This document shows, one piece after another, positions 18,406 through 61,255 of a stretch of DNA of 64,000 nt (its first letter is position 1; every line of letters begins with the position of its first letter). The notes under the pieces are model-generated. The model was not told the DNA's origin and did not search any database. It saw only the letters and a list, made by a program, of their open reading frames with translations. The position numbers and the translations under genes were made by a program. Source of the stretch: Vanrija pseudolonga (lineage: Eukaryota; Basidiomycota; Tremellomycetes; Trichosporonales; Trichosporonaceae); the NCBI RefSeq assembly GCF_020906515.1, contig NC_085850.1, positions 4,154,001 through 4,218,000 on the forward strand. The letters run 5' to 3'.

Positions 18406-18998
18406 CTAGCCGAACCTCTCCTTGAGGAGGTGTCCGATGAAGTAGGGCAGGTCCTCGCAGATCCAGTCGCTAACGGCCGCGCGGAACTCGGCATATCTAC
18501 GCTCGTAGGGCGTCTTGACGCCCTCGCGGCGGAGGCAATCATGCAGTGGCGGTAACGTGCCCAGCCTTGGTACTTGGCCTCCTCGACCTTGGGGAGGTGG
18601 GACGAGAAGAAGGCGACGACGGCGGCGGTGAGGTCGTCCACCGTCATCTGGCGGAGGCGGCGGCGGCCGATACGGAGCTGCGTGTACGGGTTGACGTCGG
18701 ACAGCTGCTCCGAGATCTCGACGATGCCCTCGCGCACCGCGTGCGCGTCGGCGTCGAGCCCGTCCGTGCCGGCCAGGTCGAGCGCCGCGAGGCTGTTGGG
18801 GATGAACTTGCGGTGGCAGGAGTAGCGGAAGGCGTGCTCGCGGTCAAAGAGCGTGTCGTAGGGCAGACGGTGGACAGGCTCCTCGTACAGCGAGGTAGTG
18901 CGCTTGAGCTTGCGGGGCAGGAAGCCTGGCGTTAGTGGCTGGCTCTTGCTTGGGTGCTTACCACGCAGGCTGGCAGTTGGGTAGATACCAGGGTACAT
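18406..18998 (-). CDS. Array gene 1, unknown, frame switch near 3' end
   Basis: Exon 1 is 18962..18998 (MYPGIYPTASLR). A 36 bp phase-1 intron follows, and exon 2 starts at 18925. The frame runs through FLPRKLKRTTSLYEEPVHRL, DREHAFRYSCHRKF and GRRRLRQMTVDDLTAAVVAF to GWARYR near 18560. The natural C-terminus (REGVKTPYERRYAEFRAAV, then DWICEDLPYFIGHLL, stop at 18406) is in another frame. No convincing intron joins them: the best one has a weak GTCGAG donor. So either a poor intron, a frameshift in the gene, or a sequence error. The RQMTVDDL block fits the shared array motif. No targeting signal or known domain. Confidence 0.5.
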
Positions 18999-19157
18999 GG
19001 TGAGTTGGGTGGTAGAAGGTGGGAGAGAGAGCAGGCGAAAGGAGGCTTGATATAGTTGTGCGCACACATGGTGGCGAGGGGCGAGATGACTCGACACGCA
19101 CACCCCGGCATAACGGAGCTCACAACAATATACCAGCGCCATCGTCCCCAACGTGTG

Positions 19158-19784
19158 TCACAAACGTTTGATACACAGCTTGCATGTGAAACTAGGAATG
19201 TAGAGGGCCACAAGACTCCCAGGCAAGCACAGTACGGATGAAATGGATGCCACTTGTGAAACTCGACTCGACGCCGCCACTTCAAGTCGTCGCTTGTCGT
19301 CCCGCCGAGACGCTGTTTGCGCCGCCGCGCGGAAGGCGCGGAAGAAGGGCATGATGAACGCGCGCGCGATGATCGGGTTGTCGAGGTCGAGGGGAATGTC
19401 CATAGCGTAGTCGATTCTGTTCCAGACAAACACCGCGAAGAGGGCGCGGAACCACAGGAAGCGCAGACCGGGCGGGAAGCGCGCAGCCCTCAGGAGGCTG
19501 TAGTACTTGACGCACCCGGCAAAAATCGCCTCCTGCGTGCGCGGGTCGCGCGAGAGGTAAACACTCATGATGGCTGTGCGGATGTGCTCGCGGTCGTGGG
19601 GGCCGGACGTGACGGTGCCCATGAGTTCCTGGACCACGTTGGGGCGCAGGCGGGAGAGGGCCTCAACGGTGTGCATGAAGGCCTCGTAGATGATGTCGTT
19701 GTGCGCGCGGCTCGTGAGCCAGCCGAGGTCGCCGTCGGAGGTGGGGGTGATGGAGGTGGTGGTGGTGGTGGCGGGGGTGGTCAT
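19158..19784 (-). CDS. Array gene 2, unknown, 208 residues
   Basis: Single coding exon from ATG 19784. The 5' leader has a 37 bp intron (19786..19822) that ends one base before the ATG, as in several neighbours. A Thr-rich start (MTTPATTTTTSITPTSDGD) leads into a helical body: NDIIYEAFMHTVEALSRL, IRTAIMSVYLSRDPRT, then an aromatic stretch FLWFRALFAVFVWNRIDYA that may be buried or membrane-associated. The last 35 residues are less protein-like, so the true stop could differ if a 3' intron was missed. No known family. Array membership rests on position, strand, leader intron and the A-x-x-SVY-type helix. Confidence 0.5.
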   Translation of the reverse strand: MTTPATTTTTSITPTSDGDLGWLTSRAHNDIIYEAFMHTVEALSRLRPNVVQELMGTVTSGPHDREHIRTAIMSVYLSRDPRTQEAIFAGCVKYYSLLRAARFPPGLRFLWFRALFAVFVWNRIDYAMDIPLDLDNPIIARAFIMPFFRAFRAAAQTASRRDDKRRLEVAASSRVSQVASISSVLCLPGSLVALYIPSFTCKLCIKRL

Positions 19785-20166
19785 GCTGCCTGTTAGCTCG
19801 GTTGGGGGGTGCGCGTGCTCACTTGCTTGGGGCGTTGGCAGGTGATTGAGAAGGACGAGAGCAGGGCAAAGGTGAGTATTTGGGTAGAATAAGAAGTGGC
19901 CAAGAGCAAGGGAGTGACGACGACGGCGGAGTGATGCACACAACACAACACGGCGCTGCCATCCTCGCACTAGCCCATGGCGTTCACCCACCGCACCTCG
20001 CCACCCAAGTGCAGCACAAATCGTCAGTGGGTTGGGCACGACGTGGTGGACATTTGCTGTTGCTACCCAGTACCTGCATGCATCTGAGCACGAGCTGGGC
20101 ATACGTTCCAATGCCCCACACCCCTCCTTTGACGCTCTCAACCGCCCCCGCCCATGTAGCCCAATA

Positions 20167-20655
20167 TCACTCGTCCTGTTCGATATCGTCTTCGTCCTCC
20201 TCTTCAATAGTGTCCAGAAAGCGGACCCACATGATCGGCTGCTGTGGGATCTCGTCGCAGATGGTGTCGAGCTTCGGGCGGACAGTGTAGGTCATGAAGT
20301 CGGCGAATGCCGAGCTAAACGCGTCCCACTCAAGCAACGTGTCGACTTGCGCCCCGGCAACTTGCAGCTGGTGCAGGGCCGCCCCGTACACGGCGTACCC
20401 GAACGACATGGCGTCGCGCGCGGCCGGCAGGTCGGAGCGGAGGAAGTCGCACATGAGGGAGGAGCGCAGGCGGGGGTGGAGCGGCTGAATGGGTGCGTAG
20501 GACTCGAACGGGACGAAGGACAGGCGGCGAATGACGGATGTCATGCCGACGCGCAGCGCTGTCGTGTTCGGCTCGACGAGCGCGTCGTTGGCCGAGTCGA
20601 GGGCGGCGAGGAGGCCCGTCCACGCCTGGACGTGCCATGCAGGAGGCTCGGCCAT
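20167..20655 (-). CDS. Array gene 3, unknown, 162 residues, acidic tail
   Basis: Single coding exon from ATG 20655, one base after a 38 bp leader intron (20657..20694; GTGAGC, CACTGACGCCCAG). The helical protein has SFGYAVYGAALHQL at about residue 85 and LLEWDAFSSAFADFMTYTV at about 110, the two halves of the shared array motif. It ends with a strongly acidic tail (EEEDEDDIEQDE). No signal peptide or known domain. Confidence 0.6.
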   Translation of the reverse strand: MAEPPAWHVQAWTGLLAALDSANDALVEPNTTALRVGMTSVIRRLSFVPFESYAPIQPLHPRLRSSLMCDFLRSDLPAARDAMSFGYAVYGAALHQLQVAGAQVDTLLEWDAFSSAFADFMTYTVRPKLDTICDEIPQQPIMWVRFLDTIEEEDEDDIEQDE

Positions 20656-21108
20656 GCTGGGCGTCAGTGCTGCCTTGGCGGGGAGGGGGCTCACTTTGTT
20701 GTACGTGTGAAGACGGTGGGAAGAGAAAGAGAGGGCGAGTGGGGGCAGTGAGAAGAGAGAGAATAGCAATGCAACAAACAGGTGACGCCACCCACGGGCC
20801 GCACCCCCCGCCGCTCCCCCACTCCTCCACCGACGTCACCCACACAACAACCGCCACTCCCCCACTGATCGTCCAACCGTCACGACGCACAATGCAGCAT
20901 GCACGAGGTAGAATGGTCAATGTGAAGAGAAGTATCTGGAGCATCCTGCAAGCTTGCATAGAGGTGAGCGGCATCATGCTATGGGCAGCTAGATACGAGC
21001 AAGCTCAGGGCGGACTAAATCAACAGTATGTGTGTGGATGACTGGAACGAGGCGTGGAAGCCACCGGCGCGGAGCCGTGGCCAAACGCCGAGCGAAAGGC
21101 CGGTAAGC

Positions 21109-21765
21109 CTAGCTGCCGACATCCCAGAGGGGAGGCAGCTCGGCGGGGATGACTTCGAAGTCGTTGTCGATGAGGTCGTAGGCCCAGAAGTCGCGGACGA
21201 ACGCGTAAAACTTCCTCTGGAAGATCTCGGCGGCAAAGACGTGGTCCCACTGGGTCGGCGTGGTGCGCAGGCACACCATGCGGTGGCAAGTAGTGAACAC
21301 CTCTGCGCCGCCGAGCATCGCGTGCTCGAACTCGGGGTCCTGCGCGGCAGCGGCCTCGGCGATGATGCGCTCGATGCGCGCGTGCACGTAGGCGCGCGGC
21401 TTGCCCCCCATCCCGCGGCGCATGCGGCGGAAGAGGCGCGCGCGCGAGAGCATGCGCGTCGCGACGTGGAAGCCCGCCTGCAGGAACGGCAGGTGCTCCT
21501 CCTCCTCGGCGGCGCGGGCCGTCGCGATACGCGCCTGCACGGCCGCGAGGGCCGCCTGCGCGGCGGTGAGGTAGCGAGGCGCGGGCTCAGGCTCGGGAGA
21601 GGGCGAGGGGGAAGCGGGGCCGATGGTCGCGTGGGTCGCGTTCGTGGCGTCGGCGGGCGACGACGGGCCGCCGTCGCCGGAGGCCGTGATGGTGAGGTGG
21701 GTGGGCGTCATCGAGTGCAGACCGACAATCGTGACGGCCATGTTACTGCGCCTGGGGCGGACCAT
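21109..21765 (-). CDS. Array gene 4, unknown, 218 residues
   Basis: Single coding exon. The start MVRPRRSN at 21765 is chosen because it lies one base after the acceptor of a 40 bp leader intron (21767..21806), the same arrangement as in genes 2 and 3. After a Ser/Pro/Ala-rich linker comes a long helical part rich in Ala, Arg and Glu (AQAALAAVQARIATARAAEE, MLSRARLFRRMRRG), then an aromatic C-terminal section with FQRKFYAFVRDFWAYDLIDN. Unknown function; the shared motif is weak here. Confidence 0.55.
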   Translation of the reverse strand: MVRPRRSNMAVTIVGLHSMTPTHLTITASGDGGPSSPADATNATHATIGPASPSPSPEPEPAPRYLTAAQAALAAVQARIATARAAEEEEHLPFLQAGFHVATRMLSRARLFRRMRRGMGGKPRAYVHARIERIIAEAAAAQDPEFEHAMLGGAEVFTTCHRMVCLRTTPTQWDHVFAAEIFQRKFYAFVRDFWAYDLIDNDFEVIPAELPPLWDVGS

Positions 21766-22824
21766 CCTGTTGTCAGCGGGGTACAGTACGGTGGTGGTTG
21801 ACTCACTTGACTTGGCGGTGGTGTTTGGTGGGATGAGAGAAGAGAGAGAGAGCTGGGATAATGTTGGGCGTTGTGTTCACCGAGACGGCGGCGCCATGTC
21901 TGCCTGTGCTGCCGCCAGTCGACTTGACGCACGCCTATCCATCCCGCCGCATTCTCGCCCCGATCAATACCCAACGTGTCTGTTGGACGAGTCGGCGGCA
22001 GGCGTGCTGCTCCCAGCGTGCAGAATTACCAATGCGACGTTTGGCCCCGCTGCCACACTTGGCGGCGGCGCTCATGCTTGACCGCTCACATATCACAACT
22101 CACTCGATTCACGCACAAGACTGGAGACGATGAGCGAGGTCCAAACTGACAACGACAAGGGTGAAGACATTGCACTTACCGAGGGCACACACCCCTCGTC
22201 GAGCATGAGCAGCACCCGTTCGCACCCCTTGCTGCGCCAACTCCCCAGAAGTCTCCCCTGCCGGCTACTGAGCCCACGCCGCCGCCCAGTCGCAAGTGAC
22301 GCCATTTGCAATCCCCAACGTGGAGCCTCAAAGACTTGGTCTGTGCTGTGCTTACTCTCACAGTCGACTGGAGGGACTCGAGACAGAGGTGCGTAGTGCT
22401 GGGTTGCCGAGAACGCGAAGTGTGGTCCAAAACGATAACCCCACGCTCATCCGCTTGATACAAGGCATCCACGACAACGTCATTTGCATACCATTGTTTT
22501 GGCTGCTAGTCTCCAATGTACCAGATGTGATGAGGCCAGGGGGAAAGGAGCGAGGTTTGCTCACACTTCTACGTGAATTGACCGACCAGAGTGCGGTCTC
22601 ACTCACCTCGCCCGCTTTCACCCACCATTGTTGTGGAGCTTAAAATGTAATCGAGCCTCCACCCATCCGTTTTACCGCCACGCAGAGGGCGAGAAGAGCT
22701 GCACAATGTCCTTGGTATCCCTCACTATATGCATGGGCACATCCTATCACAGTTTATGGACGGGGGATGGGAGAGGGGTGACTTGACGGCTGGTCGCCGT
22801 GAGAGGGGGTGGGCTCTACCGGAC
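21766..22824. other. Larger array spacer, doubtful plus-strand gene
   Basis: About 1.06 kb, roughly twice the usual spacer. On the plus strand, ATG 22130 opens MSEVQTDNDKGEDIALTE, and a different frame at 22380-22640 contains the protein-like run LIRLIQGIHDNVICIPLFWL and LLTLLRELTDQSA. No clean intron connects them. This may be a decayed or spliced small gene, or chance. Confidence 0.25.
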
Positions 22825-23346
22825 CTAAGCCGCGGGGTAGACGATCTTCATGAGGTAGTGGTTGACGTAGTCGTCAAAGCGGTCAATGCAACAGCCTTGG
22901 AAGTCCTCGTAGGTGGCCATACCACCACCAAGAATGCCGACACCGAGGTTGTACTCCTCCATGTTGGCCTTGTAGATTTCGTAGGCGGTCGAGAGCGCGG
23001 CGGAGATGTTGCCCTGGTCGTCTAGGCGGAAGCGGCGGCGGTGGCTCTCGTAAAGCTGCTCGGGGCAGAAGAGCATCGGCGCGGCGATGAGAGTCTTGCG
23101 CTCGTCCTTCATCTGCTTGATCATCGTGGTCTTGATGGGCTTGAGTTCGTCGACGATGTAGTGGAACGCCTCCTCGAAGGCCTGGTGGTGCGCGGCTTCG
23201 TCGTAGCCGTTGCCGCCCTGCTGCATGCCGGTGCCCGCAGCCGCCGCGGCCGAGTGGAGGTGGTTGCCGACGTGGAGGTTGACGTTGTGCGAGCCACTGG
23301 TGACTGGGGTGCCGTTCTGGCCAGGGGTGGCGGCGTGGTTGTCCAT
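22825..23346 (-). CDS. Array gene 5, unknown, 173 residues
   Basis: Single coding exon from ATG 23346, two bases after a 36 bp leader intron (23349..23384). The start is low-complexity, His/Asn/Gly/Ala-rich (residues 1-50). A helical domain follows with QAFEEAFHYIVDELKPIK, ALSTAYEIYKANMEEYNLG and MATYEDFQGCCIDRFDDYV, a clear case of the array motif (A-x3-AY-x2-Y then T-Y-E-D-F). No known family, signal peptide or membrane segment. Confidence 0.65.
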   Translation of the reverse strand: MDNHAATPGQNGTPVTSGSHNVNLHVGNHLHSAAAAAGTGMQQGGNGYDEAAHHQAFEEAFHYIVDELKPIKTTMIKQMKDERKTLIAAPMLFCPEQLYESHRRRFRLDDQGNISAALSTAYEIYKANMEEYNLGVGILGGGMATYEDFQGCCIDRFDDYVNHYLMKIVYPAA

Positions 23347-23767
23347 GTCTGGACTGTCAGCGCCATTGTAGTCAACGTCCTCACCTCTTGTTGTTCTTTG
23401 CTGGTGCTTGGTGAATGGAGAAGAAAGAAGAAGAAGGGCGAGTGTGACAGTTGGTGGGTTGAGAGACAATGGGTCGAGTCAACAGATGCGTGGATGGCAC
23501 AGGATGGCACGAGGCCGTCAACACACCTCCTTTCGCGTCGTCACAGCCAGTGTCAGTTGCTGTCAGACGGCACGGAAGCTTCTTGCTCATTGGAACGACG
23601 GTCTGCAGCATGCCTTTGAGAGCGTTCTGAGTAGTGGTCTACAGCGTGTGCATTGGGGGACGCCCTTCTACAAGTGGGCCACTACATGCACGGCAGAATA
23701 AGACGTTTTGGGAGCATGGGCAGACCTGCTGCATGCCGACTAAACAATGGCTACAAAAAACGGCAGC

Positions 23768-24175
23768 CTAAGCGCCATTGACAGAGTAGTTGCCAAAGTG
23801 CATGTTGATGTGACGCCAGACAAGGGCACCGAGCGACACGAAGAAGAGGTCATTGAACTCGTCATAGTTGAGGTCCGAGCCGTTGTAGCGGGCCGACGCG
23901 AAGCCCTTCTCGATGCCCTTCTTGACATCGCCCTTCTTGTACTCGACGAGGAGGCGGCGGTAGAGCTCGGCGCGGCTCGAGGAGGTGGGGAAGTCGGACG
24001 GACCGAAGTTGCTGAGCAGAGCGACCATGCGACGCTCGGTATACTCGAGCTCGTGCATGGCCGTCTGGATGCCGGGGTGCGCGTTGTGCTCGGTGCCGGT
24101 GGGGAGGAGGCTGTGGTGGTACCCGAAGATAACCGCGTGCTGAGTGGTGCCAGAGGTGTTGGGGACGGCCGACAT
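23768..24175 (-). CDS. Array gene 6, unknown, 135 residues
   Basis: Single coding exon from ATG 24175. The leader intron 24178..24215 appears to be a rare GC-AG intron (donor GCAAGT after CAACAG, acceptor CTCGCAG), ending two bases before the ATG. The protein has an N-terminal His-containing segment, a helix MHELEYTERRMVALLSNFG, then GIEKGFASARYNGSDLNYDEF, where the helix-loop-(L-N-Y-D-E-F) pattern looks like a degenerate calcium-loop end, and a final aromatic helix. Function unknown. Confidence 0.6.
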   Translation of the reverse strand: MSAVPNTSGTTQHAVIFGYHHSLLPTGTEHNAHPGIQTAMHELEYTERRMVALLSNFGPSDFPTSSSRAELYRRLLVEYKKGDVKKGIEKGFASARYNGSDLNYDEFNDLFFVSLGALVWRHINMHFGNYSVNGA

Positions 24176-24737: not shown

Positions 24738-25106
24738 CTACTTGTCCTTGTCCATGCGCGCCTTGACGGCGTGCACGAGAAGAATGGCAAAGTAGTGCGC
24801 GTCGATGACATCAGTGCCCGGCTGGGCAGCGCGACAGGACCTCTCGAGGTAGGCCTTGTGGCCGGCCATGATGGCCGGCATGACGCGGGCGTAGGTGTCC
24901 GAGTCGAGAGCGCCGAGGTCGTCGTGGAGGTCGTAGAACTCGAGGAGAGCGTCGTGCTTGACGAACTTGAGCTGGGCTGAGGCAACGTTGAAGCCATGGG
25001 CAAGCGAGGCGAGGTCCACACGGAAGGCTTCCATGGTGAGTGTGTGGAGAGTACCCTCGGCAGACGCTGAGTCGAAGGCGTTCATGTCGGTGTCGTTGGA
25101 GGACAT
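24738..25106 (-). CDS. Array gene 7, unknown, 122 residues
   Basis: Single coding exon from ATG 25106. Acidic start (MSSNDTDMNAFDSASAEG), a helix TLTMEAFRVDLASLAHGF, then RVMPAIMAGHKAYLERSCRA and DVIDAHYFAILLVHAVKARM, which align with the two helices of the array motif (A-G-H-K-A-Y; D-A-H-Y-F). It ends in a basic MDKDK. No leader intron was seen. Unknown function. Confidence 0.6.
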   Translation of the reverse strand: MSSNDTDMNAFDSASAEGTLHTLTMEAFRVDLASLAHGFNVASAQLKFVKHDALLEFYDLHDDLGALDSDTYARVMPAIMAGHKAYLERSCRAAQPGTDVIDAHYFAILLVHAVKARMDKDK

Positions 25107-25744: not shown

Positions 25745-26203
25745 TCAGTAAGGCTTGTAGCGGTACGAGCGAAGTGGGCCTGGAACTGCCTTGCGCTTGG
25801 GCTTGAGTTCAGGAGTGGCAGGTGGAGTGGCATTAATGTCAAGGGGGTCGAGAATGACAAGGGGGATGGAAGTGAAGAGGGGCGAGAGGCGAGGCAACTT
25901 GCGCACGGCGGCGCTGAGACCGATGTCCCTGCAAAGGTTCTCTTCGAGCGCCTTGAACGCCATCTCGGAGTACTTGCCGACGAACTCGGTGAGCGAGAGG
26001 GTCGGGTAGTCGGTGGGAGGGGGCGCCTTGCTGAGGTAGAGGTTGTAGGCCTTCTTGAGCGCGGCCTTGACCTCGGGATCGCAGAGGGGAGTCCAGATGG
26101 AGAAACCGAGGTTCATGATCGCCTCGGCTGCCTTCTTGCGGCCGTCGCCGAGAGCGAGGGCGTGGATCTGGGAGGCGTCGAGTCCGTCGTACATGGTGGC
26201 CAT
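25745..26203 (-). CDS. Array gene 8, unknown, 152 residues
   Basis: Single coding exon from ATG 26203. The leader contains a 35 bp intron (26221..26255) ending 17 bases before the ATG. Motifs: KKAAEAIMNLGFSIWTPL, ALKKAYNLYLSKAPPPTDYP and TLSLTEFVGKYSEMAFKALE, the cleanest copy of the array signature. The tail is Pro/Lys-rich and basic (PELKPKRKAVPGPLRSYRY). It may bind nucleic acid or a protein partner, but nothing in the sequence proves it. Confidence 0.65.
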   Translation of the reverse strand: MATMYDGLDASQIHALALGDGRKKAAEAIMNLGFSIWTPLCDPEVKAALKKAYNLYLSKAPPPTDYPTLSLTEFVGKYSEMAFKALEENLCRDIGLSAAVRKLPRLSPLFTSIPLVILDPLDINATPPATPELKPKRKAVPGPLRSYRYKPY

Positions 26204-26878: not shown

Positions 26879-27514
26879 CTAACGGCGATAAGTCTTGAAA
26901 ATGGGGCGAGCGACGGGGGCAGCCGGGAGCCGCACAAACGGTGCAGGTATCACGGGGCAGATCAGGTTGAGAGAGATACCAACCTTCATGGCTGTGACGG
27001 CAGCGTTGTGGTAGTACCGGGCGTAGAAGTCGTCGACGGTGATGTACATGTCGGGGGACCCGGTGCGCACGGGGTGGTCGTGGCCGTCCCAGAACTCAGA
27101 CGCGTGCGCGCGGTAGAGACCGTAACCCTCGTCGATGGCGCCCCAGAACTCAAGCGAGGAGAGAGGGTGGTGGGGGTGTTGGAACATCATGTGGTTGAGC
27201 TCCTTGAGCGTACGGGAGAGGCCCTTCTGGATCGCGACCTCGAGGGCGGGATACTCGTGCGGCTGGCAGATGTACGGACCGGGGCGGGGGTCGGAGCGCC
27301 GGGCTGCATGTCAGCGCCTGTTCAGGCATGGGCACTCACGGAAGGGCAGGCCCGTTGGCACCTTGGGTGTCGCCTTGCGGTTGCGGATTCGGATTCGGAC
27401 TCGAGGCTTGTTGGCTGGCAGCAGGGGTCGGTTGGCCACGGGTGCCTCATCTGGCTGTGGGGGGGTGCTGGCAACAGGTGGCTTCGCTCGACCCGTTTTC
27501 TTGATCCGTGCCAT
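26879..27514 (-). CDS. Array gene 9, unknown, 199 residues, basic N-terminus
   Basis: Exons 27340..27514 and 26879..27303 with a 36 bp phase-1 intron. The first 58 residues are very basic (MARIKKTGRAKPPVAS; RVRIRIRNRKATPK), suggesting nuclear or nucleic-acid association. The second exon carries LEVAIQKGLSRTLKELNHMM, AIDEGYGLYRAHASEFWDG and MYITVDDFYARYYHNAAV, the archetype of the shared motif. The last 30 residues after AMK may be an unrecognised intron plus short exon, since a GTTGGT donor occurs there. No known family. Confidence 0.65.
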
Positions 27515-27731: not shown

Positions 27732-28098
27732 CTACTGAGACTGAGCCTGAGACTGAGCCTGAGCCTGAGCCTCAACACAGTCGTAGTACATGTCCGCGAA
27801 CTGCTCAAACGAAAGCCAGTCGTCGTAGGGGTCGAGCTCCATGCGGTAGACGGTGTATCCGTGGTTGACAGCGTTGTTGAGATCATCTTGCGAGAAGATA
27901 ATGCCGACTGGAGTCACCTCGCCGTTGTTGTTGAGGTAGTCGTCGACTGCCAGGATGCCGGTCGAAATGTGAGTGGTCGCGGCGTAAGGCGTGGTGCGGG
28001 GCTGCGTCGTGTTCGCGGCAGCGGGTTGACCTGAGTGTCAGCTGGGGCATGGAATGGTGGAGCCTACCAGACCCGTTGTAGTTCTTATCGTTGACCAT
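27732..28098 (-). CDS. Array gene 10, unknown, 109 residues, Q/A/S tail
   Basis: Exons 28068..28098 (MVNDKNYNGS) and 27732..28030, 37 bp phase-1 intron. After a Thr/Pro-rich linker come VTPVGIIFSQDDLNNAVNHG, YTVYRMELDPYDDW and LSFEQFADMYYDCVEA, the smallest complete copy of the array domain. It ends in a short repeat of Gln-Ala and Gln-Ser pairs (QAQAQSQAQSQ). It defines a minimum domain of about 60 residues. No known function. Confidence 0.68.
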
Positions 28099-28347: not shown

Positions 28348-29303
28348 TCACCACCGGCGAGGAGGCAGGGTGATGCCATTGGAATCAACCTTCTTCGTGC
28401 CAAGCATGAGCATTTGGTTGTTGATGTCACGGAACACTTGATACGTGAGTGGAACGAGGCCCTTGGGTGCCGGAAGGTCCTTCTTGGTCTTGTTCCATCG
28501 ATCGACGTAGTGGTTGTGGCCGACGAGCCGGGCTCCGCGAGCGGCCATGCTGTCCTGGCGGTGGTGAATCCGATGAGGCGGCGCCGCGAGCTGTGCAATA
28601 ACCGAGTCGTCGAGATCGGCAAGCATCATCATTGTCACCAACATGCCCTCACAGAGCTCGCCGATACCGTCGACCAGTTCGGGGTTGAAGAGGTCATGAA
28701 CGCCAAGTTGGAAGGGCATTGGAGGCAAGGTGTCGGCCAAGCTCTTTGTCGCTGTCGTCTTCTTGTTCTGGTAGTGCCAGACAAGCTGCACCTCGCCGTA
28801 GAATTGGTCGCAGGTGAGGGCTTCTTTCGGCCTCCGCTGCTTCTGAAGAAGACCTCGGTAGGTGTGGTATGCGCTGGTGATAGCGATGACAACCTTGACA
28901 AGCTCGTCGACAGTAAGCTGGAAAGGGTCCCCGAAACCCTCGAGAGTGCCAAGGCGGGCGAGGAGCGTCCAAGCCCGCCAAATGCCCTCCGTGAGGGGGG
29001 TTTCGGCGGTCGGCTTGGGCTTGGGCTTCGGAGCCGCAGCGCTCTGTTCTCCCGGGTGGGTGGACTCGTCGTCCGAGTCGCTCACGTAGATCGTTAGGAG
29101 GTTTAGGCCTTCGGGCGTCGGGTGGGTGGAAGAAGACGCGACAGCCGATTGGGATTGGGTGGCGGCTTGGCGCGTTTTCTTGGGTGACGACATCGGCGAT
29201 ACCTGCGAGTCCTCGTCTCGTGTAGCTGGAAGGTCAACTCAGAAGCCCGTCAGAACTTACAGCTACTTGACCGTTTAGTACCAGCACGGATGGCTTTGGG
29301 CAT
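28348..29303 (-). CDS. Array gene 11, unknown, 306 residues
   Basis: Exons 29261..29303 (MPKAIRAGTKRSSS) and 28348..29225, with a 35 bp phase-1 intron; the upstream exon is preferred over the internal MSSPKKTR start because it splices in frame. Basic and Ser-rich residues 1-60, a Lys-Pro repeat (APKPKPKPTAE), then VKVVIAITSAYHTYRGLL and EALTCDQFYGEVQLVWHYQN (array motif near residues 135-180). A second half holds PEVDGIGEL-like and MMMLADLDDSVIAQL helices and a basic stretch, DRWNKTKKDLPAPKGL. One of the longer members; function unknown. Confidence 0.62.
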
Positions 29304-29605: not shown

Positions 29606-30152
29606 TTACAGCAGCACGGGATCTGCAGCCAGCTGAGCCCAAGCAATCAAGAATAGGATCCACCCGGCAGTCTTGGCAAAACCGTGATCTGTAAGACCTG
29701 TGAAGACTGAACCAGGTTGCTGGCGTCGCGTTAAATCGAAGAAGTAGTAGCCATAACCAAGATAGTACGATTTGACCGCCAAACAGATGTTCGCGTCGCT
29801 CTCGGCAATGGTAATTGGTCTCTGGTGGTTGAGCAGGAGGCGACGGAGATCCCCTTTGTGGTCGATTATGCTTGTCCAGGTTGCAATGATCCCCTGTATA
29901 AGGGTTTCTCGCTGAGAATCAAGCATTGCCGGGTAGATCGGACCACCAAGCTCGGGAAATAGGTACACGGTCATACCGTCTAGATTTGCGGCCAGCGGTC
30001 CCCGAGGGTCTGCACGTCGTCGTCGAGATCTGCCCTTCACGCTGACTGGGTTGGCAGACTTCTTCTGTCCGGTACCTGGGCGGTCAGCGAGGAAGTTCTT
30101 CACTGGTGCACCTACCAGTGCGACATGCTTTGTGGCGGTTGTTCTTGGCCAT
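29606..30152 (-). CDS. Array gene 12, unknown, 168 residues
   Basis: Exons 30116..30152 (MAKNNRHKACRT) and 29606..30075, 40 bp phase-1 intron. The start is strongly basic (GQKKSANPVSVKGRSRRRRA). The body is helical and aromatic: LIQGIIATWTSIIDHKGDL, ICLAVKSYYLGYGYYFFDL and AKTAGWILFLIAWAQLAAD. The last is hydrophobic enough to be buried or membrane-associated. The array pattern is recognisable in AVKSYYLGYGYY but the T/S-x-x-E-F half is lost. Unknown function. Confidence 0.58.
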
Positions 30153-30565: not shown

Positions 30566-31698
30566 TTAGCCGCCGGCCACGTCGGCGGCCGCATCGCTGA
30601 TGTAGAGGCCGAGAGCATTGGCCGAGTGCTCCCCCGAGGGATTGACCGAGTGCTCGTCCGAGTGCTCGTCCGACTGCGCGTCTGACTGCTCTATGGACTG
30701 CTTGGCGGGCTGCGCGGCCGGCTGCTGGAAGGGTAGTCAGTACGGTGGTCCGCAGACAGAGAGGCAGGTTAGACCGACACTCACGGAGCGGTACTTCATG
30801 TGCTCCATGAGAAGGTTGCAAAGGTGGTGGCGGAGGCTCACGTCGCAACGCATGCCCTGCTTCCAAGGGGGCGGCACTCCCACGACCTCGATTTCAACAT
30901 CGGTCCTGCGGTACCAGGGTGCTCCCTTTGTGTTAAAGACGGCCATCTTGATCTTGAGTACCTTCTGCGGAATCTTCTTCTTCTTGTCAATTGCCATCAT
31001 CTCGCGGGGGTAGAGGATGGGCCAGATGAACTCGAGCGTCGACAGGTAGTACTCGGAGAGGCGGAGGCGGCGGGAGCGAATGCCACCAGCATCCTTGAAC
31101 TTGCCACGGTACTCCATGAACCCGCTCCAGAAGGCCTTGTCGATGGTCGCCATGACGTCAGCACTGATAACAGCGCCGGGGGCGGCCGCCTGACGCTCAA
31201 GCTCGAAGATGTCAATGCCCGTCTTCTTCAGGTTGCGGTGGGTGATAGCGGCAGCCGCCTGGACAGCATGCAGGTGGGAGCAGAAGGCCTCCTTGACGTT
31301 GGCGCAGATGCCAGGGTGGTTGTTGGCAAGCTGAGCAAAGGCCAGCTCCTGGGGTGTGTTGCCGTTCCACTCGTTGTCCCCGTGTGTAATGCCCGAGCTC
31401 TCGTGGTTGAAGAGGGACGCTGGGATGTCAGTTGGGGCCCGCTGGCCACAGCCAAGGACTCACCGTTCGCAGCATCCTCCTTGATCATGTTCTTACGGGC
31501 CGTGTTGGCAGCCTTCTTGGCCAAGCGAGAAGCAACGAGAGATTCGTGCCCGGCAGCAATGATCTTGGCCTGAATGGTGGCACGGGTGACAGAGTCAACT
31601 AGACGATTAGCGGGGATCCCTCGAAGGTTGCTTCACTCACTACCGTCGTTCGCGGTGCCATTGATGCTGACAACGGGGGCCTCCGGGATGATGGTCAT
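30566..31698 (-). CDS. Array gene 13, unknown, 327 residues, QSD/EHSD tail
   Basis: Exons 31644..31698, 31464..31598, 30785..31419 and 30566..30724. The first two introns are phase 1 (45 and 44 bp); the third is phase 0 (60 bp). The body has VKEAFCSHLHAVQAAAAITH, TIDKAFWSGFMEYRGKFKD and LRLSEYYLSTLEFIWPILY (array motif near residues 175-215), followed by a Lys-rich segment (IDKKKKIPQKVLKIK). Exon 4 encodes a separate tail rich in Gln, Ser, Asp, Glu and His with repeats such as QSDEHSDEHS. No known family. Confidence 0.62.
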
Positions 31699-32721: not shown

Positions 32722-33207
32722 TTACGCCGCAGCACCCGCAACAATCTCGGTGTCGGCGGCGACGCGAGCGGTGCCGTTCGCCTGAGGCATCACGAGGAAC
32801 TCGAGAGTCTTGAGGGCGAATTCGCCGAACTCAGCGGCATCGAGGAGGGGGTGGTACGCGGGGTATCCGGTAGCGGCGATGGCGGCGTCGGTGGTGTCGC
32901 ACGCCGCGCGGCGGAAGTAGACGGTGTATCCGGCGCGAAAGGCGGCGACGACTGCATCCGTGATTTCGGTGGGGCGGTCAATGGGGAGGCCCGCCGCCGC
33001 AAACTTCTCCCACACAAAGAGCGCGCCTTTAACCATAGCGGCCATCGAGCCGATCTTGTTGTAGAGCCGTTCGGGGCAGTCCACCGACGCGCGGACGACG
33101 GCGGTCACGGTGTCGCGGTCGAGCTCCGGCGAAGGGAAGGTGTACGTGCGGCGGGTGGGCGACGCGCTCGCCGAGTTGGGAACCGAAGAGGTGACGCCGG
33201 TGGCCAT
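32722..33207 (-). CDS. Array gene 14, unknown, 161 residues
   Basis: Single coding exon from ATG 33207. The leader has a 50 bp intron (33255..33304) with a tandemly doubled 15 bp branch-point region. The Ser/Thr-rich start is followed by YTFPSPELDRDTVTAVVRAS, a helix MAAMVKGALFVWEKFAA, then VVAAFRAGYTVYFRRAACD and LLDAAEFGEFALKTLEFLV: both halves of the array motif, with G-Y-T-V-Y exactly as in gene 10. No known function. Confidence 0.63.
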   Translation of the reverse strand: MATGVTSSVPNSASASPTRRTYTFPSPELDRDTVTAVVRASVDCPERLYNKIGSMAAMVKGALFVWEKFAAAGLPIDRPTEITDAVVAAFRAGYTVYFRRAACDTTDAAIAATGYPAYHPLLDAAEFGEFALKTLEFLVMPQANGTARVAADTEIVAGAAA

Positions 33208-33544
33208 CTTGATGGGTGTCTTGGGGTGTTTGTGCCTTGGTGCGCTGGCTGCGGCTGGATGTTAGCTGGTTCAATGTTAGCTGGTTCAATGGGTTGAAAC
33301 CTACCAGGACGAGCTGAGCGCTTGTTCTTTGTGACGGCGGAAAGGGCAATGGAGACACAGTGAAGGGTGGGTGTAATTGTCGCCTTTTGAATGTGGGAAA
33401 GGAGGGACAAACGGCGGTATTCTTGGCCACCACAACAACCAGCCAACTCTGACTCGGCGATCGAGAGACAAGCCTGCTACTCGTCACAACTGGGGCAAAA
33501 TGTGTTGCATACGGCAGCGAGGAAATGGACTGAACTACACTGCT

Positions 33545-34223
33545 CTACTGGTCCACTGTCTCCCCCGATGCGCGCGAGGCGATGGTCGTAGTGCGGTCGC
33601 GATTAGCCTTGGTGATATGGGCGTTCGCGGCAATGTAGGAGTTGCACCACCAGCGAAAGTCCTTGAAGCTCATCAGGGTGCACTGAGGCTTCTTGTTCAT
33701 GAGCTTGTTGAGGGAGTTGCTTGCGAAGTTGGCGGCGAAGTTTGACGTCTTGTAAGACTCGTACCCCTCCTTGATGATCTCGTTCAGCTTGCTGGCCGTC
33801 TCCCAAGAGAGTCCAACGCGCTTCCCCATCCACTTCTCCTCGAGCTCGGCGTATTCGGCGTTGGTAAAAGAGTCGCCGACCATCATGTCTGCATACTGGA
33901 GACCGACGAGGAGCGCGTGGCCATAGCGGGACATGACGTGGTCTCTGAATGAGACGTCCGAGTAGCGGACAGTGGCCTCGAAGGGGCCTGCCGCCGGCGG
34001 GTGGGAAGAAAGGGCGCTGGAAGTGTTGAAGGAGTTGCTCGTCTGGTACAGTCAGCGTTTGGCCCCCACATCTGGTGCACTCACTGCGGTCGCCTGGGGC
34101 GTCGTGGTGAGCTTACCGCTCCCCCAGTGGTAGAAGGACTGTGTGGGCCCGCCTGCAACGTTAGCTTTCCCAGAGCAGATCGGACGGCTTACCGGGACGG
34201 TTGGGACCAATACTTTGGGACAT
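33545..34223 (-). CDS. Array gene 15, unknown, 198 residues
   Basis: Exons 34193..34223 (MSQSIGPNRP), 34085..34152 and 33545..34042. The first intron is phase 1 (40 bp), the second phase 0 (42 bp). After a Ser/Thr-rich linker the protein has VMSRYGHALLVGLQYADMM, TASKLNEIIKEGYESYKTSN and TLMSFKDFRWWCNSYIAANA, a full array motif (E-G-Y-E-S-Y; M-S-F-K-D-F). Ends TTTIASRASGETVDQ. No known family. Confidence 0.64.
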
Positions 34224-34598
34224 GGTTGCTTGAGTGAGGTGAGCGACGTTGTAACAAGTGCATTGGGGGTACGGCAAATGGCAACAAGGGGTACGCTGCG
34301 GTGCGGCGTCGGGGCGAGCGACCTCGCCTCCTCCATGTTGTTGACACACAAGCTCAAACGACCATGGCGTGCCTCGGCGCCAGCCACGATCCCACTTGCC
34401 CCATTGCAGCCAGCGCCGCAGCAGCCAGGGTGACACGACTCTGATGCGAGTTGCCACCGTCAGTCCCCCACCGCCTCTCGCCACCCAACCGCACCGCACG
34501 CCCATGCCCGCAGCTCACAGCGCCAACAATCATAATGCATACTGGCCCCACCACGAGCCTAATTCAACTGGAAAGCAGTGCAAAGCAAAGCCTCTCGC

Positions 34599-35108
34599 TT
34601 AGCCGACGTAGTTCTCGTCGATCTTGAGGTAGAGCGAGAACTCGCCGCTGAAGGCGCGGCGGCGCATGGTGCCGGCGCCCGGGTTCTTGAGCTCCATCGC
34701 CGCGACGAACACCTCGTAACCCTTGGTTTCGGCCTCCTTGATCTTGAACGCCACCTCGGCCGAGAGGGTGTTGATCTGGCCGCGGCGGAACATCTTGACC
34801 TCGTCCCAGTTGCCGCGGGTGAGGGTCTGGTGGATGACCTCGTTCGCCTTCTCGCAGCCGAGGAAGATCTCGGGGGAGAAGGTGGCCTGGCGGATCTCCT
34901 TGACGGAGCGGCCGGTGACGGGGGGAGTGGTCTCGGCACCGGCGTTGAGGAGGGTGTTGTTCGAGTCGGCGCCCGCGGTGGTGGGGGCACCGAGGGTGGT
35001 GGTGACAACGATGTTCTCGGTCGCGTCTAGCTCCGTCAGAGAGGGAGAACACGAGGAGGGGTTGTACTCACCAACGGCGGGGGTCTGGTTCTGGTTGCGC
35101 TGGACCAT
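34599..35108 (-). CDS. Array gene 16, unknown, 154 residues
   Basis: Exons 35072..35108 (MVQRNQNQTPAV) and 34599..35026, 45 bp phase-1 intron ending GCTAG. A Thr-rich linker is followed by RSVKEIRQATFSPEIFLGCE, AFKIKEAETKGYEVFVAAME and RAFSGEFSLYLKIDENYVG, the array motif placed at the very C-terminus. No known family or targeting signal. Confidence 0.62.
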   Translation of the reverse strand: MVQRNQNQTPAVGEYNPSSCSPSLTELDATENIVVTTTLGAPTTAGADSNNTLLNAGAETTPPVTGRSVKEIRQATFSPEIFLGCEKANEVIHQTLTRGNWDEVKMFRRGQINTLSAEVAFKIKEAETKGYEVFVAAMELKNPGAGTMRRRAFSGEFSLYLKIDENYVG

Positions 35109-35525
35109 TTTTGCCTTGTGGTGGATAGTACGAAAGAGAGTGAGTGAGGATGAAGCGCCAAGATGGTACACACGGTGCCCAGGGCTAGGGTTGGCACAGG
35201 CAGCGCCGGCCACGTCGCTGCGTGGGGCAGGCCATGGCTGGGCTGGTTGGACGAGTGTGGCACAGTGGCACACACATCGTGTATGTGACGCCTCACGGGC
35301 GGTGCATGGGTGACAAGACGTGCCACGTGGATCTCACAGTGCAGTATCATGGTCTGGATGAGGTATGCCATGCAGGCCTGTTCATCGGCTGTCTCGTAAC
35401 CGGGGCAGCAACGCCCGAGAAGGCTGGGGAACGCAGTACTGGACTCAGTTGGAGGTCAGCGTGTAGGCAGCCCCGCTCATCGTCAACTACTCAATGCATA
35501 AAGCGAGAAACTACGAGTCATAGCA

Positions 35526-38500
35526 CTAGATCAGGGCAGTAGTAAGAGGCATCTGCGGGAATCCGTGCGGGTTGAACTTGTTCGAGAGAATGTAGTGGTG
35601 GAACGCAAGGAAGCACATGGGCTTGCGGGGAGCCTGGCCCGTCGCCTGCTGGTACAGTTCGTCATGCGCCTTCATGAAGCCCTTGTAAACGTAGTGACCT
35701 TGGATCGTGGCGATTGAGACCTTGAAAAGCGTGTCGCGCGAGTAGCCTGGAAGCTCGCCGCTCATAACGGTGAAGAACTCCTGCCAGTTGTTGTGGGAGA
35801 ACATGCGGAACAGCCTCCAGGTCGCGAAGAAGATGCCGAACGCCATCTCGGTGCCGCGGACAGGCGGGAAGTAGAGGCCGGTGCGGAGGAACAGGTTGCG
35901 CGGCGAGGCATCCGGGAACGCGATGTCGTGGAAAATGATGGGGGACGAGCGATGCGTTGCGTTCGAGGTGGTGCTAGTCGCGCTGTTGCCAGCCGAGGTG
36001 TTGGGAGCCGCCGAGGCGCTTGGGGTAGCAAAAGCCATTGGTGCCGTCCCAACCGCCTGGTTGGAAGGAGCGGCATAGCCAGCGGGAGGGCCATGGACGG
36101 CCTCAAACGCACAGCTAGAAGTGGTTCCACCACTGCCGCTCTGCTGAACAGTCGAGGCGACGCCCGAGTTGGCACGGACCTCATCGATAACCTGCTCCAT
36201 GGCACGGAGAACCTCAGCAACCTCAGCATCAGTTGGGTGGATCTCGATATGCGTATCTGAGGTTAGCAGGAAACATGCAGGTGAGACGTACCATTGATAC
36301 CCGGGCCAAGCTGGTTGGCCTGGTCCGTAGTCGTCTGGCCAGTAGTGGCAGGCGACGTGAAGTTCGCGCCGACGCGGTTCGCGTCGGGCACGGGCGCCGA
36401 GGTCTCGCTCACGAGATCCTCGTCCTTGAAGTTACCAGTTGAACTGGTGGCCGGGGCGCCGCCGGCCATGAACCGAAAAACCGCGTCGGGCGCGGCCGCG
36501 GTCTGCTGCTGGGCGCCAGGCTGCGAGGCCGTGGCACCGTCACCGACATTGGCGTCGTACACCTGCGTCGCCGAAGGGCCGTTCACGCTGCTTTGCTCGT
36601 TGAAGTTGCCAGTCCAACTGATGGCCGGGGCGTTGAGGCGGGGAATGCCAAAAATGGCGCTGGGCGCGACGGCGGTGGGCAGCTGGGCGGCAGGAGCCGA
36701 GGTCGTGGTACCCGCAGCGGCCTCAGCCGAACCCCCACCAAACCCCGCCGCCATCATGAGCGAGTCACGGTCAACTGCCGAGCCGGTGTCGTTGCCGGCG
36801 TTGTTCATGAGGCCAAGGCCAATCGACGTGGCCGAGTAGTTGGAGTGGCTCTGCTGGGGGACAGGCGGCGAGGTGTCCGCGGGCTTGGGCTGGTCGGGGT
36901 AGTCGATCGCCCAACTGAACTCGTCCTCCTCGGGCTGGCTGGCGATGGTGGGGCTCATGGTGCTACCACGCGAGTCGATGGCGGGCGTCATGAGGGGAGT
37001 CTCGGCAGGCGAGGCGATTGTCGAGCTCCCCGCCACGCTGGAGACGCTGTGGGTGGCACGCGCCACGTTGGGGACGCCAAAGTTCGTGCGGTGGGCCGAG
37101 CCCATTGGAGTCTCGGCTGGCGAGGCGACCGACGAGCTCGCCGCCACACGGGGGGTGGTGAAGGTGCCACGCGCCACGCTCGGGCCGCCAAAGTTGGGGC
37201 GGTGGGCCGAGCCCTGGGCAGGCATCGCGCGAACGATGTAGGTGGTTGGACCAAGCGCCGTCTGGTGTGTGACCCCCATGGACGGCTGAACCCAGTCCTG
37301 ACTGAGAGCATTCTTGGTGACGGTCTCTGACCTTTTAGGGACGTTGAAAAGACGCGACGCACCGAGGTCGTGCTGATCCTTGGGGGTCACGACATGGTAA
37401 GGAGCGCGCGTCGCGGCCACGGGAGGGCCAAAGCCAGCGGCCATGTGAGGGGCAAAGCCAGTAGCGACGTGAGGGGCATGGCCCAACGCCATGTGAGGGC
37501 CATGGCCAACAGGAGGAACATGGCCAGCGTGAGGAGCACGGCCAATGTGGGGAGCATGGCCAATGGGAGGAGCGTAGCCAATGGGACGAGCATTGCCAAC
37601 GGGGTGGAAAGCGGAGGGATCTGGCATTAGCGAGACGAACTCAGACGATGCACTTACTCATGCCACCCGGGTGATTGACAAAGTTGTTGTTGATGTTGAG
37701 CGCGCTCACGTACGCGGCCATCTCCTCCGCCTCGCCAGCTGCGAGCGGCGGTCCAGCAGCAGGAGGGGCGGAGGCCGTGCTTGGCCCATCCGAGCGAGGG
37801 CCCCAAATGAGCTCCTCCATGCCGGGGTTCTGGTCGAGGAACTCGACGACCTTCTCCTCGGGGACATTGAGCTGGCCGCCGTTGGAGGCAGCGAAGATGG
37901 CGTACGCCACATCGTCGTCGGGTGGAGGCGGGATCGCATGGCCATGCTGGCCGTACTGGCCTTCCTGGGGGTGCTGGAGCTGCTGGCCGTGCTGGCTGTG
38001 CTGGCCTTGCGGGGGATGCTGGAGGTACTCGGCGTACTGGTGGTCATAGCCATGCTGGGGGTGCTGGCCTCGCTCGCCATGCTGGCCGTACTGGGGGTGC
38101 TGCGGGTGCGGTCCTTGCTGACCGTATTGGCCGTGCTGGCCGTCCTGACCGTATTGACCGTACTGTGCGTGCTGGCCTTGCTGGAGGTACTGGAGGTGCT
38201 GACCATGCTCGGGGTGCTGGGGGTGCTGGGGTTGCCGACCGTGCAGGCCATGCTTGGGGAGCTGGACATGCTCGGCGTACTGGTGGTGCTGGCCAAGCTG
38301 GGGGTGCTGGAACTCGGCGTGCTGGTCGTACGGGAGGTACTGATCGTGCTGGGAGGGCTGCCCGTGCTGACCGTACGGGGCGTGCTGGCTGACTTGAGCA
38401 TTCCCGCCATCATCGTCGACTGGAGCAGCAGCCTGCGCGGTGGAATTGATAGCAGGAGCAGCGGTGCTCGGAGTGGCCTTAGCCTTGCCCTTGCCCTTGT

Positions 38501-39721
38501 CCTTGGCCTTGGCCTTGTCCTTGCCCTTGCCCTTGCCCTTGCCAACCGCGGGCTGCGGCGTATTGTCGTCAACCGGCTGTTGCGTGCCGTCGTCGGCGAT
38601 ACCAGCGGCGAGAAGCCTTTCGGCCTTGAGCTTGCGCCAATCTTGTGTCAGCTGGGCCCATTGTACACACTCACCATTTCCGCACAGACGCTTCTTGGTG
38701 GGCTGCGCGATACCAGTGCTCCCGGCAGAGACAACGGTGTCCACAGTGGCGGCAGCGGTGCTTTCAGCGGCGGCAGCGGTGCTTTCAGCGGCGGCAGTGT
38801 TGCTCCCACTGGCGGCAGCAACCGTGTTCCCAGCCCCAGCAGCAGCCTTGGCAGAGGCAGCGGCGTCGACAATATTGCTCCAATCAGTGTTCCAAGTGAC
38901 AGCAGTAGCCTGGGGAGCGGGAGCAGAGGTGCGCGCGCGAGTGTTGGGGGCTAAGCTGTTAGCGAGGCAACCGTGCAGCGCTTACGCGACTTCGAGGCCG
39001 CCGCAGTGGCGCTGTTAGTGGTTGTGCCGCCCGGCGCGTAGGCATTGTTGGGTCCGGGCTTGGCGCGCTCTGAGGTCAGCGAGGAGGTTGACGCAAAGGA
39101 CTCACTGGCGGCGGTCTTGGGCTTGGGGACAGTACCCGCAACCGCGGGATCGGCGGTCGCCTCGGGGGCGGGCGAGGTGGCCTTGCGATCTGTGTGTGTT
39201 AGATGATACAGACGTCGGAAGACACTCACTGTTGCGAGTGCGCGACGTGCGCGGGAGGAGCGGTTCGATGATGCCGCTGCCGCTGGCGTCGGCGACGGAG
39301 GACTCGCCACCGCCCTCCTTGAAGTAGGGGTCATCGTCGGCCGTCGTCGGCGCCGATGCCGGCGCCGCCTCCTTGCGGGCTGCATAGTCAGCGAAGAACA
39401 ATGAGTTTACCCACTCCTTGGCTTGTTCTTGGTCACCGGCGCGGCGGCCACGTTGGCGCCGCCGTCGTTGGTGGCGTCGACGTTCGAGGTCGTCGCTGGG
39501 TGGTGTGAGCAGTCCCCATGTGTGTGTGACTCACCAGCTGCCTGGTTGCCGGTGTCGACAGCGGCGCTGTCACCAGCACCACCACGAGCGGCGGGCTTCT
39601 TCTTGGTAGCTGCGTGTCAGCGTGGACGACGACGAGAGCACTCACGCTTGGCCTTGGGGGTCTGTTGCTCCATGGCAGCTTTGTGCTGACCGAGAGCAGG
39701 GAAGTCCTTGTCAATATCCAT
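35526..39721 (-). CDS. Array gene 17, 1289-residue modular protein with His/Gln/Gly repeats
   Basis: Ten exons on the minus strand: 39646..39721, 39535..39609, 39415..39495, 39230..39379, 39106..39189, 38986..39069, 38675..38950, 37658..38641, 36292..37620, 35526..36256. All nine introns are 33-40 bp and phase 1. Exons 2-7 encode short basic, Pro/Ala/Thr-rich modules; exons 4 and 5 begin alike (TRKEAAPASAP and NRKATSPAPEA). Exon 8 has a Lys-Gly/Lys-Ala run (GKGKGKGKDKAKAKDKGKG) and about 150 residues of QHGQYGQ/QHPQ repeats, prion-like in composition. Exon 9 opens with GHAPH-type repeats and goes on Ser/Thr/Pro-rich. The C-terminal exon carries the array domain: VSIATIQGHYVYKGFMKAHD, then CFLAFHHYILSNKF. 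The start is the only ATG before the first donor that fits. Nuclear or condensate-forming protein is inference. Confidence 0.68.
37380..37615 (-). repeat. GHAPH-type pentad/octad repeats in array gene 17
   Basis: In-frame repeats at the start of exon 9: units such as IGHAPHIGRAPHAGH and GHGPHMALGHAPHVA, seen at DNA level as recurring ATGGCCAA- and CATGTGAGGGG-like blocks on the plus strand. Confidence 0.7.
37925..38405 (-). repeat. His/Gln/Gly/Tyr-rich coding repeat in array gene 17
   Basis: About 160 codons dominated by Gln, His, Gly, Tyr and Pro in irregular QHGQ, QYGQ and QHPQ units. On the plus strand it appears as CTGGCCGTGCTGG-like repeats, which create a long false open frame there. 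Confidence 0.8.

Positions 39722-58102: not shown

Positions 58103-61255
<3,153 letters not shown>

What the first reader, a model, noticed from the sequence alone, without database searches (positions are those of the whole stretch)
18406..39721. Unnamed, fast-diverging family of 17 same-strand genes splitting an aromatic gene cluster
Seventeen consecutive genes on one strand share a roughly 60-residue signature (A-x3-G/A-Y-x2-Y/F, loop, L/M-S/T-x2-E/D-F, aromatic helix), although overall identity is very low. Lengths, linkers, tails and intron placement vary, with Ser/Thr-, Lys- or Gln/His-rich extensions. I recognise no known domain. Such arrays usually mean repeated duplication with diversifying selection, as in self/non-self recognition, effector-like or regulatory families. 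The signature ends resemble a decayed EF-hand loop exit (L-S-x-x-E-F), only a weak hint.
Basis: partly seen in the sequence, partly recalled or inferred. Interest (0 to 1): 0.9.

Follow-up and report, generated by a model that had tools for sequence, protein, structure and literature searches.

The report
Two arrays of hugely diverged genes
A yeast carries a row of about 17 neighbouring genes, and a second row of about six nearby, that look unrelated but appear to descend from one ancestral gene for a small protein with no named relatives and no known function.

Summary
The array is real. The genome is Vanrija pseudolonga. About seventeen minus-strand genes (18406-39721) share a weak 60-110 residue domain: tested against a profile of the others, 16 of 17 held-out members were beaten by at most 5 of 300 own shuffles. 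g12 is doubtful, and g17 may be one gene or up to three. Extensions: (1) a second, oppositely oriented array of about six genes lies 40 kb beyond, outside the window, plus one likely copy on another contig; (2) 13 of 17 genes have an intron near the start codon, against 3 of 39 controls, and near-start coding introns are phase 1 with few exceptions; (3) near neighbours are on average more alike (permutation p 0.0005); (4) a hydropathy scan shows no clear signal peptide; (5) the only relative found elsewhere, a probable orthologue of g14, best conserves the signature and loop, against an arms race there. The EF-hand hint fails. Best reading: tandem duplication and extreme divergence of an unnamed, probably intracellular and helical interaction domain, laid out like fungal sequence-unrelated effector arrays but apparently not secreted.

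The parts
18406..18998 (-). g01, 150 aa; weakest form of the signature; leader intron after 37 coding nt (phase 1)
19192..19784 (-). g02, 177 aa; A-I-F-A-G-C-V-K-Y; leader intron in the 5' UTR ending 1 nt before the ATG
20167..20655 (-). g03, 162 aa; A-M-S-F-G-Y-A-V-Y; UTR leader intron
21109..21741 (-). g04, 210 aa; degenerate signature (GGAEVF); UTR leader intron
22825..23346 (-). g05, 173 aa (annotated as LOC62_02G003363 with a longer, 202 aa, N-terminus); best leave-one-out score; UTR leader intron
23768..24175 (-). g06, 135 aa; G-I-E-K-G-F-A-S-A then L-N-Y-D-E-F; no leader intron above threshold
24738..25106 (-). g07, 122 aa; A-I-M-A-G-H-K-A-Y; no leader intron found
25745..26203 (-). g08, 152 aa; A-L-K-K-A-Y-N-L-Y then L-S-L-T-E-F; UTR leader intron
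26879..27514 (-). g09, 199 aa; A-I-D-E-G-Y-G-L-Y then I-T-V-D-D-F; Lys/Arg-rich N-terminus; no leader intron, first intron phase 1 after 175 nt; one hydrophobic stretch near residue 158
27732..28098 (-). g10, 109 aa; A-V-N-H-G-Y-T-V-Y then L-S-F-E-Q-F; leader intron after 31 nt, phase 1
28348..29303 (-). g11, 306 aa; A-I-T-S-A-Y-H-T-Y then L-T-C-D-Q-F; possible degenerate second domain copy (6.4 bits); leader intron after 43 nt, phase 1 (model extended by hand); weak codon usage
29606..30152 (-). g12, 168 aa; doubtful or decaying member (no leave-one-out score, non-coding-like codon usage); leader intron after 37 nt, phase 1 (model made by hand)
30566..31698 (-). g13, 328 aa; A-F-W-S-G-F-M-E-Y; leader intron after 58 nt, phase 1
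32722..33207 (-). g14, 161 aa; A-F-R-A-G-Y-T-V-Y then L-D-A-A-E-F; UTR intron about 60-100 nt upstream; only member with a probable orthologue found elsewhere (P0005, 54% identity)
33545..34223 (-). g15, 198 aa (model identical to annotated LOC62_02G003371); I-I-K-E-G-Y-E-S-Y; leader intron after 31 nt, phase 1
34599..35108 (-). g16, 154 aa; A-E-T-K-G-Y-E-V-F; highest codon-usage score; leader intron after 37 nt, phase 1
35526..39721 (-). g17: one gene of about 1,080-1,210 aa or up to three; low-complexity stretches (Lys-, Gln/His-, Ser/Thr-rich) and the domain in the last 170 residues, 35526-36038 (A-T-I-Q-G-H-Y-V-Y)

Best explanation
Well supported: the array-1 genes, and those of a second array 79.8-89.5 kb from the window's first base, descend from one ancestral gene by tandem duplication followed by divergence to the limit of detectability; one more likely member is on another contig. 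Each encodes a protein without a clear secretion signal: a low-complexity tail, in several members Lys/Arg-rich, and one domain of 60-110 residues. Inferred: the domain is a small helical module made of helix A, a linker, helix B (Phi-x2-A-Phi-x2-[GA]-[YHF]-x2-[YF]), a loop of very variable length, and an L-[ST]-x2-[ED]-F-like entry into an aromatic helix C. It works as a protein-protein interaction module inside the cell or nucleus. The conserved helix faces hold the fold, and the paralogue-specific loop and tail choose the partner, so the array is a set of subfunctionalised adaptors or regulators.
For: Leave-one-out profile: 16 of 17 members with at most 5 of 300 own shuffles reaching them. 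Second array found from motif clustering (4 places within 6.2 kb; Poisson 1.3e-8, about 5e-5 after correcting for windows). All 4 of those places have the L-[STAP]-x2-E-F exit, which was not part of the search pattern, against 1 of 41 motif places elsewhere, chosen by eye (2 of 41 for the looser form; Fisher 1e-4 on the looser form). The array-1 profile alone ranks h2 and h3 first and second outside array 1 among 2124 ORFs. Intron with its donor within -100 to +60 of the ATG in 13 of 17 genes against 3 of 39 controls (score threshold 5; 9 against 3 at threshold 6). Ten near-start coding introns at 31-58 nt are phase 1, against a background of 52 of 156 introns. Similarity falls with array distance (rho -0.29, p 0.0005). 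Prolines depleted in helix B (4 of 352 residues against 81 of 1632 in the rest of 22 cores). No clear signal peptide. Probable orthologue pair: signature plus loop 34 of 42 identical, rest 49 of 111.
Against: No structure was obtained; the helical fold is inferred from composition, and a helical-moment test was not significant (341 of 2000 shuffles reach it). Nothing links the family to a partner, compartment or phenotype. By the same rule that finds the exit at 4 of 4 array-2 places, only 3 of 7 array-1 places have it (2 strictly), and the C8 member lacks it. h1 and h5 were added by reading, not found by the array-1 profile. g09 has a hydrophobic stretch (Kyte-Doolittle 1.72 over 19 residues) that could be membrane-like. 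Loop conservation rests on one pair, with the segment chosen after seeing the alignment. Leave-one-out scores are low (3-17 bits); core boundaries and gene models are mine (g11 and g12 by hand), without RNA evidence. h1 (66 nt, phase 0) and the C8 model (9 nt, phase 0) break the phase rule; h6 obeys it with a weak splice site; first coding introns of g02 and h4 are later ones in phase 2.
Confidence: 0.5

Rival explanations
1. The array is a non-self recognition (allorecognition or incompatibility) repertoire under diversifying selection.
For: Tandem array of strongly diverged paralogues with variable loops and tails; almost no relatives found elsewhere.
Against: The variable loop is among the best conserved parts of the one probable orthologue pair (19 of 23). 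No incompatibility-type family among Pfam matches of the members scanned. No population data.
Confidence: 0.15
2. The genes are secreted effectors or killer-type proteins, like the smut and mildew arrays they resemble.
For: Same genomic layout and the same kind of intron evidence as published effector families.
Against: N-termini are mostly polar, Ser/Thr- or Lys-rich; none of 23 proteins has a clear signal peptide by a simple hydropathy scan, h1 being partly hydrophobic with an uncertain start.
Confidence: 0.05
3. The domain is a decayed EF-hand pair that lost calcium binding.
For: L-S-x2-E-F resembles the exit of an EF-hand loop; helix-loop-helix order is similar (direct reading). The small profile-profile score (11.2 and 12.6) was not reached by 40 column shuffles.
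Against: That comparison, with seven EF-hand pairs of this genome, aligns only 7-9 columns, probability about 1%. None of 16 EF-hand_7 places lies in the arrays. No EF-hand family among the Pfam matches.
Confidence: 0.05
4. The genes are unrelated orphans and the shared signature is chance plus selective reading.
For: Identities to the first sequence of the alignments are only 9-27%, and the bare motif is not enriched genome-wide.
Against: Leave-one-out scores, out-of-sample array 2 with the L-x3-E-F exit, leader-intron architecture and adjacency correlation.
Confidence: 0.05
5. The family derives from a domesticated mobile-element protein (for example a capsid-like helical protein) and is drifting.
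For: Small proteins of no known family; one member (g12) looks decayed.
Against: No convincing repeated DNA between members in a direct-repeat search (inverted repeats and other element hallmarks were not searched). Fifteen of 17 members (all but g11 and g12) keep codon usage within or near the control range, and g14 and P0005 share a constrained core.
Confidence: 0.08

Closest known systems
Tin2-like effector cluster of Ustilago maydis chromosome 19 (sequence-unrelated, structurally similar effectors; PMC9816061, passages and sections 13 and 16 seen)
   Same: Tens of kilobases of seemingly unrelated neighbouring genes; subclusters of neighbours keep detectable similarity; extra members elsewhere in the genome; fusion of the domain to disordered stretches; positions under constraint.
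   Different: Those proteins are secreted and belong to a plant pathogen; here no signal peptide is evident. The common fold was shown there by structure prediction, not here.
Powdery mildew Y/F/WxC effector candidates (PMC2886064, passages seen)
   Same: Low sequence similarity, one short aromatic motif, and a shared phase-1 intron taken as evidence of common origin (51 of 54 genes there).
   Different: Signal peptides and a cysteine-containing motif, intron 218-329 nt into the gene; here the intron lies within about 100 nt of the start codon, on either side of it.
EF-hand domain (Pfam PF13499)
   Same: Helix, loop, then a Phi-[ST]-x2-[ED]-F exit (direct reading).
   Different: Loop length varies widely between members and there is no profile match beyond 7-9 columns.

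Membership tests
[quoted passage not shown]
   Hydropathy scan of 23 proteins, (simple heuristic, no dedicated predictor; h1 partly hydrophobic with an uncertain start)
[quoted passage not shown]
   g15-g16 (1.6e-4) and g16-g17 (1.3e-3) detectable, g15-g17 weak (0.02); rho -0.29, permutation p 0.0005
[quoted passage not shown]
   Structure job was interrupted and the predictor was then switched off
Powdery mildew Y/F/WxC family | Y/F/WxC motif after a signal peptide | tested here: not met
   No clear signal peptide; the shared motif is A-x3-[GA]-Y-x2-[YF], without cysteine. Y/F/WxC itself was not searched for
Powdery mildew Y/F/WxC family | Shared phase-1 intron 218-329 nt from the start codon | tested here: not met
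   A shared phase-1 intron exists but at another position, 31-58 nt
EF-hand | Profile match to the EF-hand pair | tested here: not met
Fungal allorecognition (HET-type) genes | Recognised incompatibility or NLR-type domain | tested here: not met
   No such family among Pfam matches: ten members or fragments (g16 in the wrong frame) and 16 of 17 array-1 cores; g01 and array 2 not scanned
Fungal allorecognition (HET-type) genes | High allelic polymorphism or incompatibility phenotype | not testable with these tools
   Only one strain available

The most novel reading that the evidence does not exclude
A non-secreted, array-borne repertoire of sequence-unrelated paralogues in a basidiomycete yeast: the hyperdivergent array strategy known for secreted pathogen effectors, used inside the cell with an undescribed domain, where each paralogue's loop is dedicated to its own partner.
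Probability: 0.35. Interest if true: 0.75.

Novelty: new variant of a known kind. Interest (0 to 1): 0.52.

Why it matters
The published arrays I read about of neighbouring genes that look unrelated but share one origin are secreted effectors of plant pathogens. Here a similar pattern appears in proteins without a clear secretion signal, in a yeast genus described as generally free-living (PMC7026411, passage), in two oppositely oriented arrays, with a phase-1 leader intron as an independent marker of descent. If a common fold is confirmed, extreme divergence of array genes would need no host arms race, and a domain not found in Pfam could be named. The intron marker also offers a way to find members that sequence searches miss.

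Tried and rejected
Word-based homology searches of 5.8 billion proteins found only the array's own proteins and P0005: g05 alone (41 candidates), a 13-sequence profile (2469 candidates, four proteins), the g14/P0005 pair (best 8000 candidates scored, two proteins). The method needs shared 5-residue words, so absence from other Vanrija species is not proved.

Searching the genome with g15's last exon and with g17's domain returned only themselves. Ten members or fragments in Pfam (g16 was in the wrong frame there and in the alignment, and correct later) gave two matches below cut-off (DUF2560, 0.018; Toxin_37, 0.022). Sixteen cores (not g01, not array 2) in Pfam, NCBIfam, PHROGs and PADLOC gave only weak single-member matches. 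The profile against solved-structure sequences gave a best E of 0.071, a molecule named 'H12'. Rfam and tRNA scans of the window were empty.

Helical moment of helix B: not significant. Shared promoter words: the best, CACACAA, is upstream of 8 of 17 genes against 1 of 38 controls (p 1.5e-4), borderline after correcting for the 505 words tested, which were preselected as frequent in the family; not pursued. Direct repeats in 18000-40000: four families inside g17, and two short ones (34-35 nt, 68-80% alike) joining different places, probably chance.

Of 120 non-array motif places listed were fetched, chosen by eye as helix-like, plus one; two more lay in flanks already scanned. One of the 40 fetched (C8) scored as a member; L052 (E 0.05 with the array-1 model, 0.0017 with the enlarged one) and L023 (0.45, 0.039) look like chance. 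Seventy-nine of the 120 were not examined. Literature searches on Vanrija, Trichosporonales and tandem or orphan families showed nothing on this family in their listings; PMC12820176 and PMC7026411 were searched for key words only.


Full report
WHAT GENOME. The window lies on contig C2 of a 24.87 Mb, nine-contig genome. A protein search with g05 returned a 100% match annotated LOC62_02G003363 of Vanrija pseudolonga, so this is that basidiomycete yeast. PMC12820176 lists a V. pseudolonga DUCC4014 assembly (passage seen); that the window comes from that strain is my inference.

THE ARRAY. With a simple gene finder trained on long ORFs of the window I recover 17 genes on the minus strand between 18406 and 39721; g12 and the start of g11 were modelled by hand. 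The g15 model is identical to the annotated protein LOC62_02G003371; the g05 model is 29 residues shorter at the N-terminus than the annotated one. g17 (35526-39721) can be read as one gene of 1,083-1,214 residues, but at default settings the finder gives three genes with a slightly higher summed score (218 against 213), of which only the last carries the domain. Codon usage supports 16 of 17 as coding, g11 weakly (0.08); g12 is negative with GC3 0.56 and may be decaying. If the annotated tags are consecutive, two of my genes between g05 and g15 were not annotated; this is inference.

IS THE SIGNATURE REAL. The literal motif is in 8 of 17 proteins against a shuffle mean of 0.18 (0 of 2000 reach 8) and 1 of 39 control proteins; a relaxed form is in 12 of 17 against a shuffle mean of 1.19 and 4 of 39 controls. 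Leave-one-out profiles: 11 of 17 beat all 300 own shuffles, 5 more are beaten by 1 to 5 of 300, g12 fails. In the 16 tests with a score, 16-17 of the 330 window ORFs scored at least as high, equal to the number of family ORFs in that set. Pairwise searches alone are nearly blind: the clearest pairs are g15-g16 (about 2e-4), g16-g17 (about 1e-3) and g01-g03 (0.01), in a database of 17. The core boundaries were chosen by me, which favours the scores; the next tests do not depend on that.

WHAT THE PROTEINS LOOK LIKE. A simple hydropathy scan of 23 proteins shows no clear signal peptide (h1 was given as its first 256 residues and is partly hydrophobic at an uncertain N-terminus; g17 was given as its last 615 residues). 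One stretch, in g09, reaches 1.72 over 19 residues, above the cut-off of 1.6 usual for membrane helices (recalled); the next highest is 1.55 in g12. N-termini are mostly Ser/Thr/Pro/Ala- or Lys/Arg-rich. Helix B is poor in proline (4 of 352 residues against 81 of 1632 in the rest of 22 cores) and its conserved positions fall on one helical face by eye, but a helical-moment test was not significant. No library searched has the domain. The EF-hand idea was tested against seven EF-hand pairs from the same genome and aligns only the L-S-x2-E-F stretch; none of 16 EF-hand places in the genome is in the arrays. Structure prediction could not be completed.

SELECTION. The only relative found outside this genome is P0005, a 153-residue protein on an unnamed 37.7 kb contig (source tag 'lgn'), 54% identical to g14 and probably its orthologue. 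Between them the signature and loop (residues 81-122) are identical at 34 of 42 positions, the rest at 49 of 111 (Fisher 3e-5; the segment was chosen after seeing the alignment); the loop alone is 19 of 23, while the exit and helix C are only 7 of 19. The loop that differs most between paralogues is thus strongly kept here. One pair proves little, but it points to dedicated function rather than an arms race at the loop.

CONTEXT. On the left lie an intradiol dioxygenase (16930-17986) and a lactonase (12830-14897); on the right an intradiol dioxygenase (41175-42347), an iron-dependent alcohol dehydrogenase (42941-44071, position fits a maleylacetate reductase, recalled), FAD-binding monooxygenase-like proteins (44820-46255, 46587-47828) and a phenol hydroxylase (59155-61255). 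Whether they once formed one cluster is not testable here. The neighbours of array 2 look like ordinary genes by eye; I ran no family search on them.

COMPARISON. In Ustilago maydis a 40 kb segment with 24 secreted effectors holds mostly Tin2-like proteins that share a predicted fold despite dissimilar sequences, with subclusters of neighbours and fusions to disordered stretches (PMC9816061, sections 13 and 16 read). [quoted passage not shown] Both are secreted; this one shows no clear sign of being so. It resembles those arrays in how it evolved, but it is not a member of either family.

VERDICT. Duplication is well supported, diversifying selection is not shown, the EF-hand hint fails, and the molecular function is inferred only.

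Noticed in passing
window 4392-5606 (+): Gene of a second family without a Pfam match (MEWLSSAW...), with relatives on the far side of array 2 (C2:4271024-4273047) and five weaker places on contig C4:3169557-3263672; the two C2 locations bracket both arrays.
   Followed up: partly
window 37939-38389: Nine-base-period repeat coding a Gln/His/Gly/Tyr-rich stretch inside the g17 stretch, about 50 copies.
   Followed up: no
C2:4233800-4236462 (about 79.8-82.5 kb in window coordinates): h1, the array-2 gene nearest array 1, is long and low-complexity like g17, the array-1 gene nearest array 2; the two arrays are transcribed away from each other.
   Followed up: no
window 29606-30152: g12 has codon usage like non-coding DNA and may be a decaying member.
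   Followed up: partly
window 30609-30691: Tandem repeat of 12 and 24 bases in the 3' coding end of g13, giving a Ser/Glu/His-rich tail.
   Followed up: no
upstream regions of array-1 genes: The word CACACAA occurs upstream of 8 of 17 array genes against 1 of 38 controls; borderline after correction.
   Followed up: no
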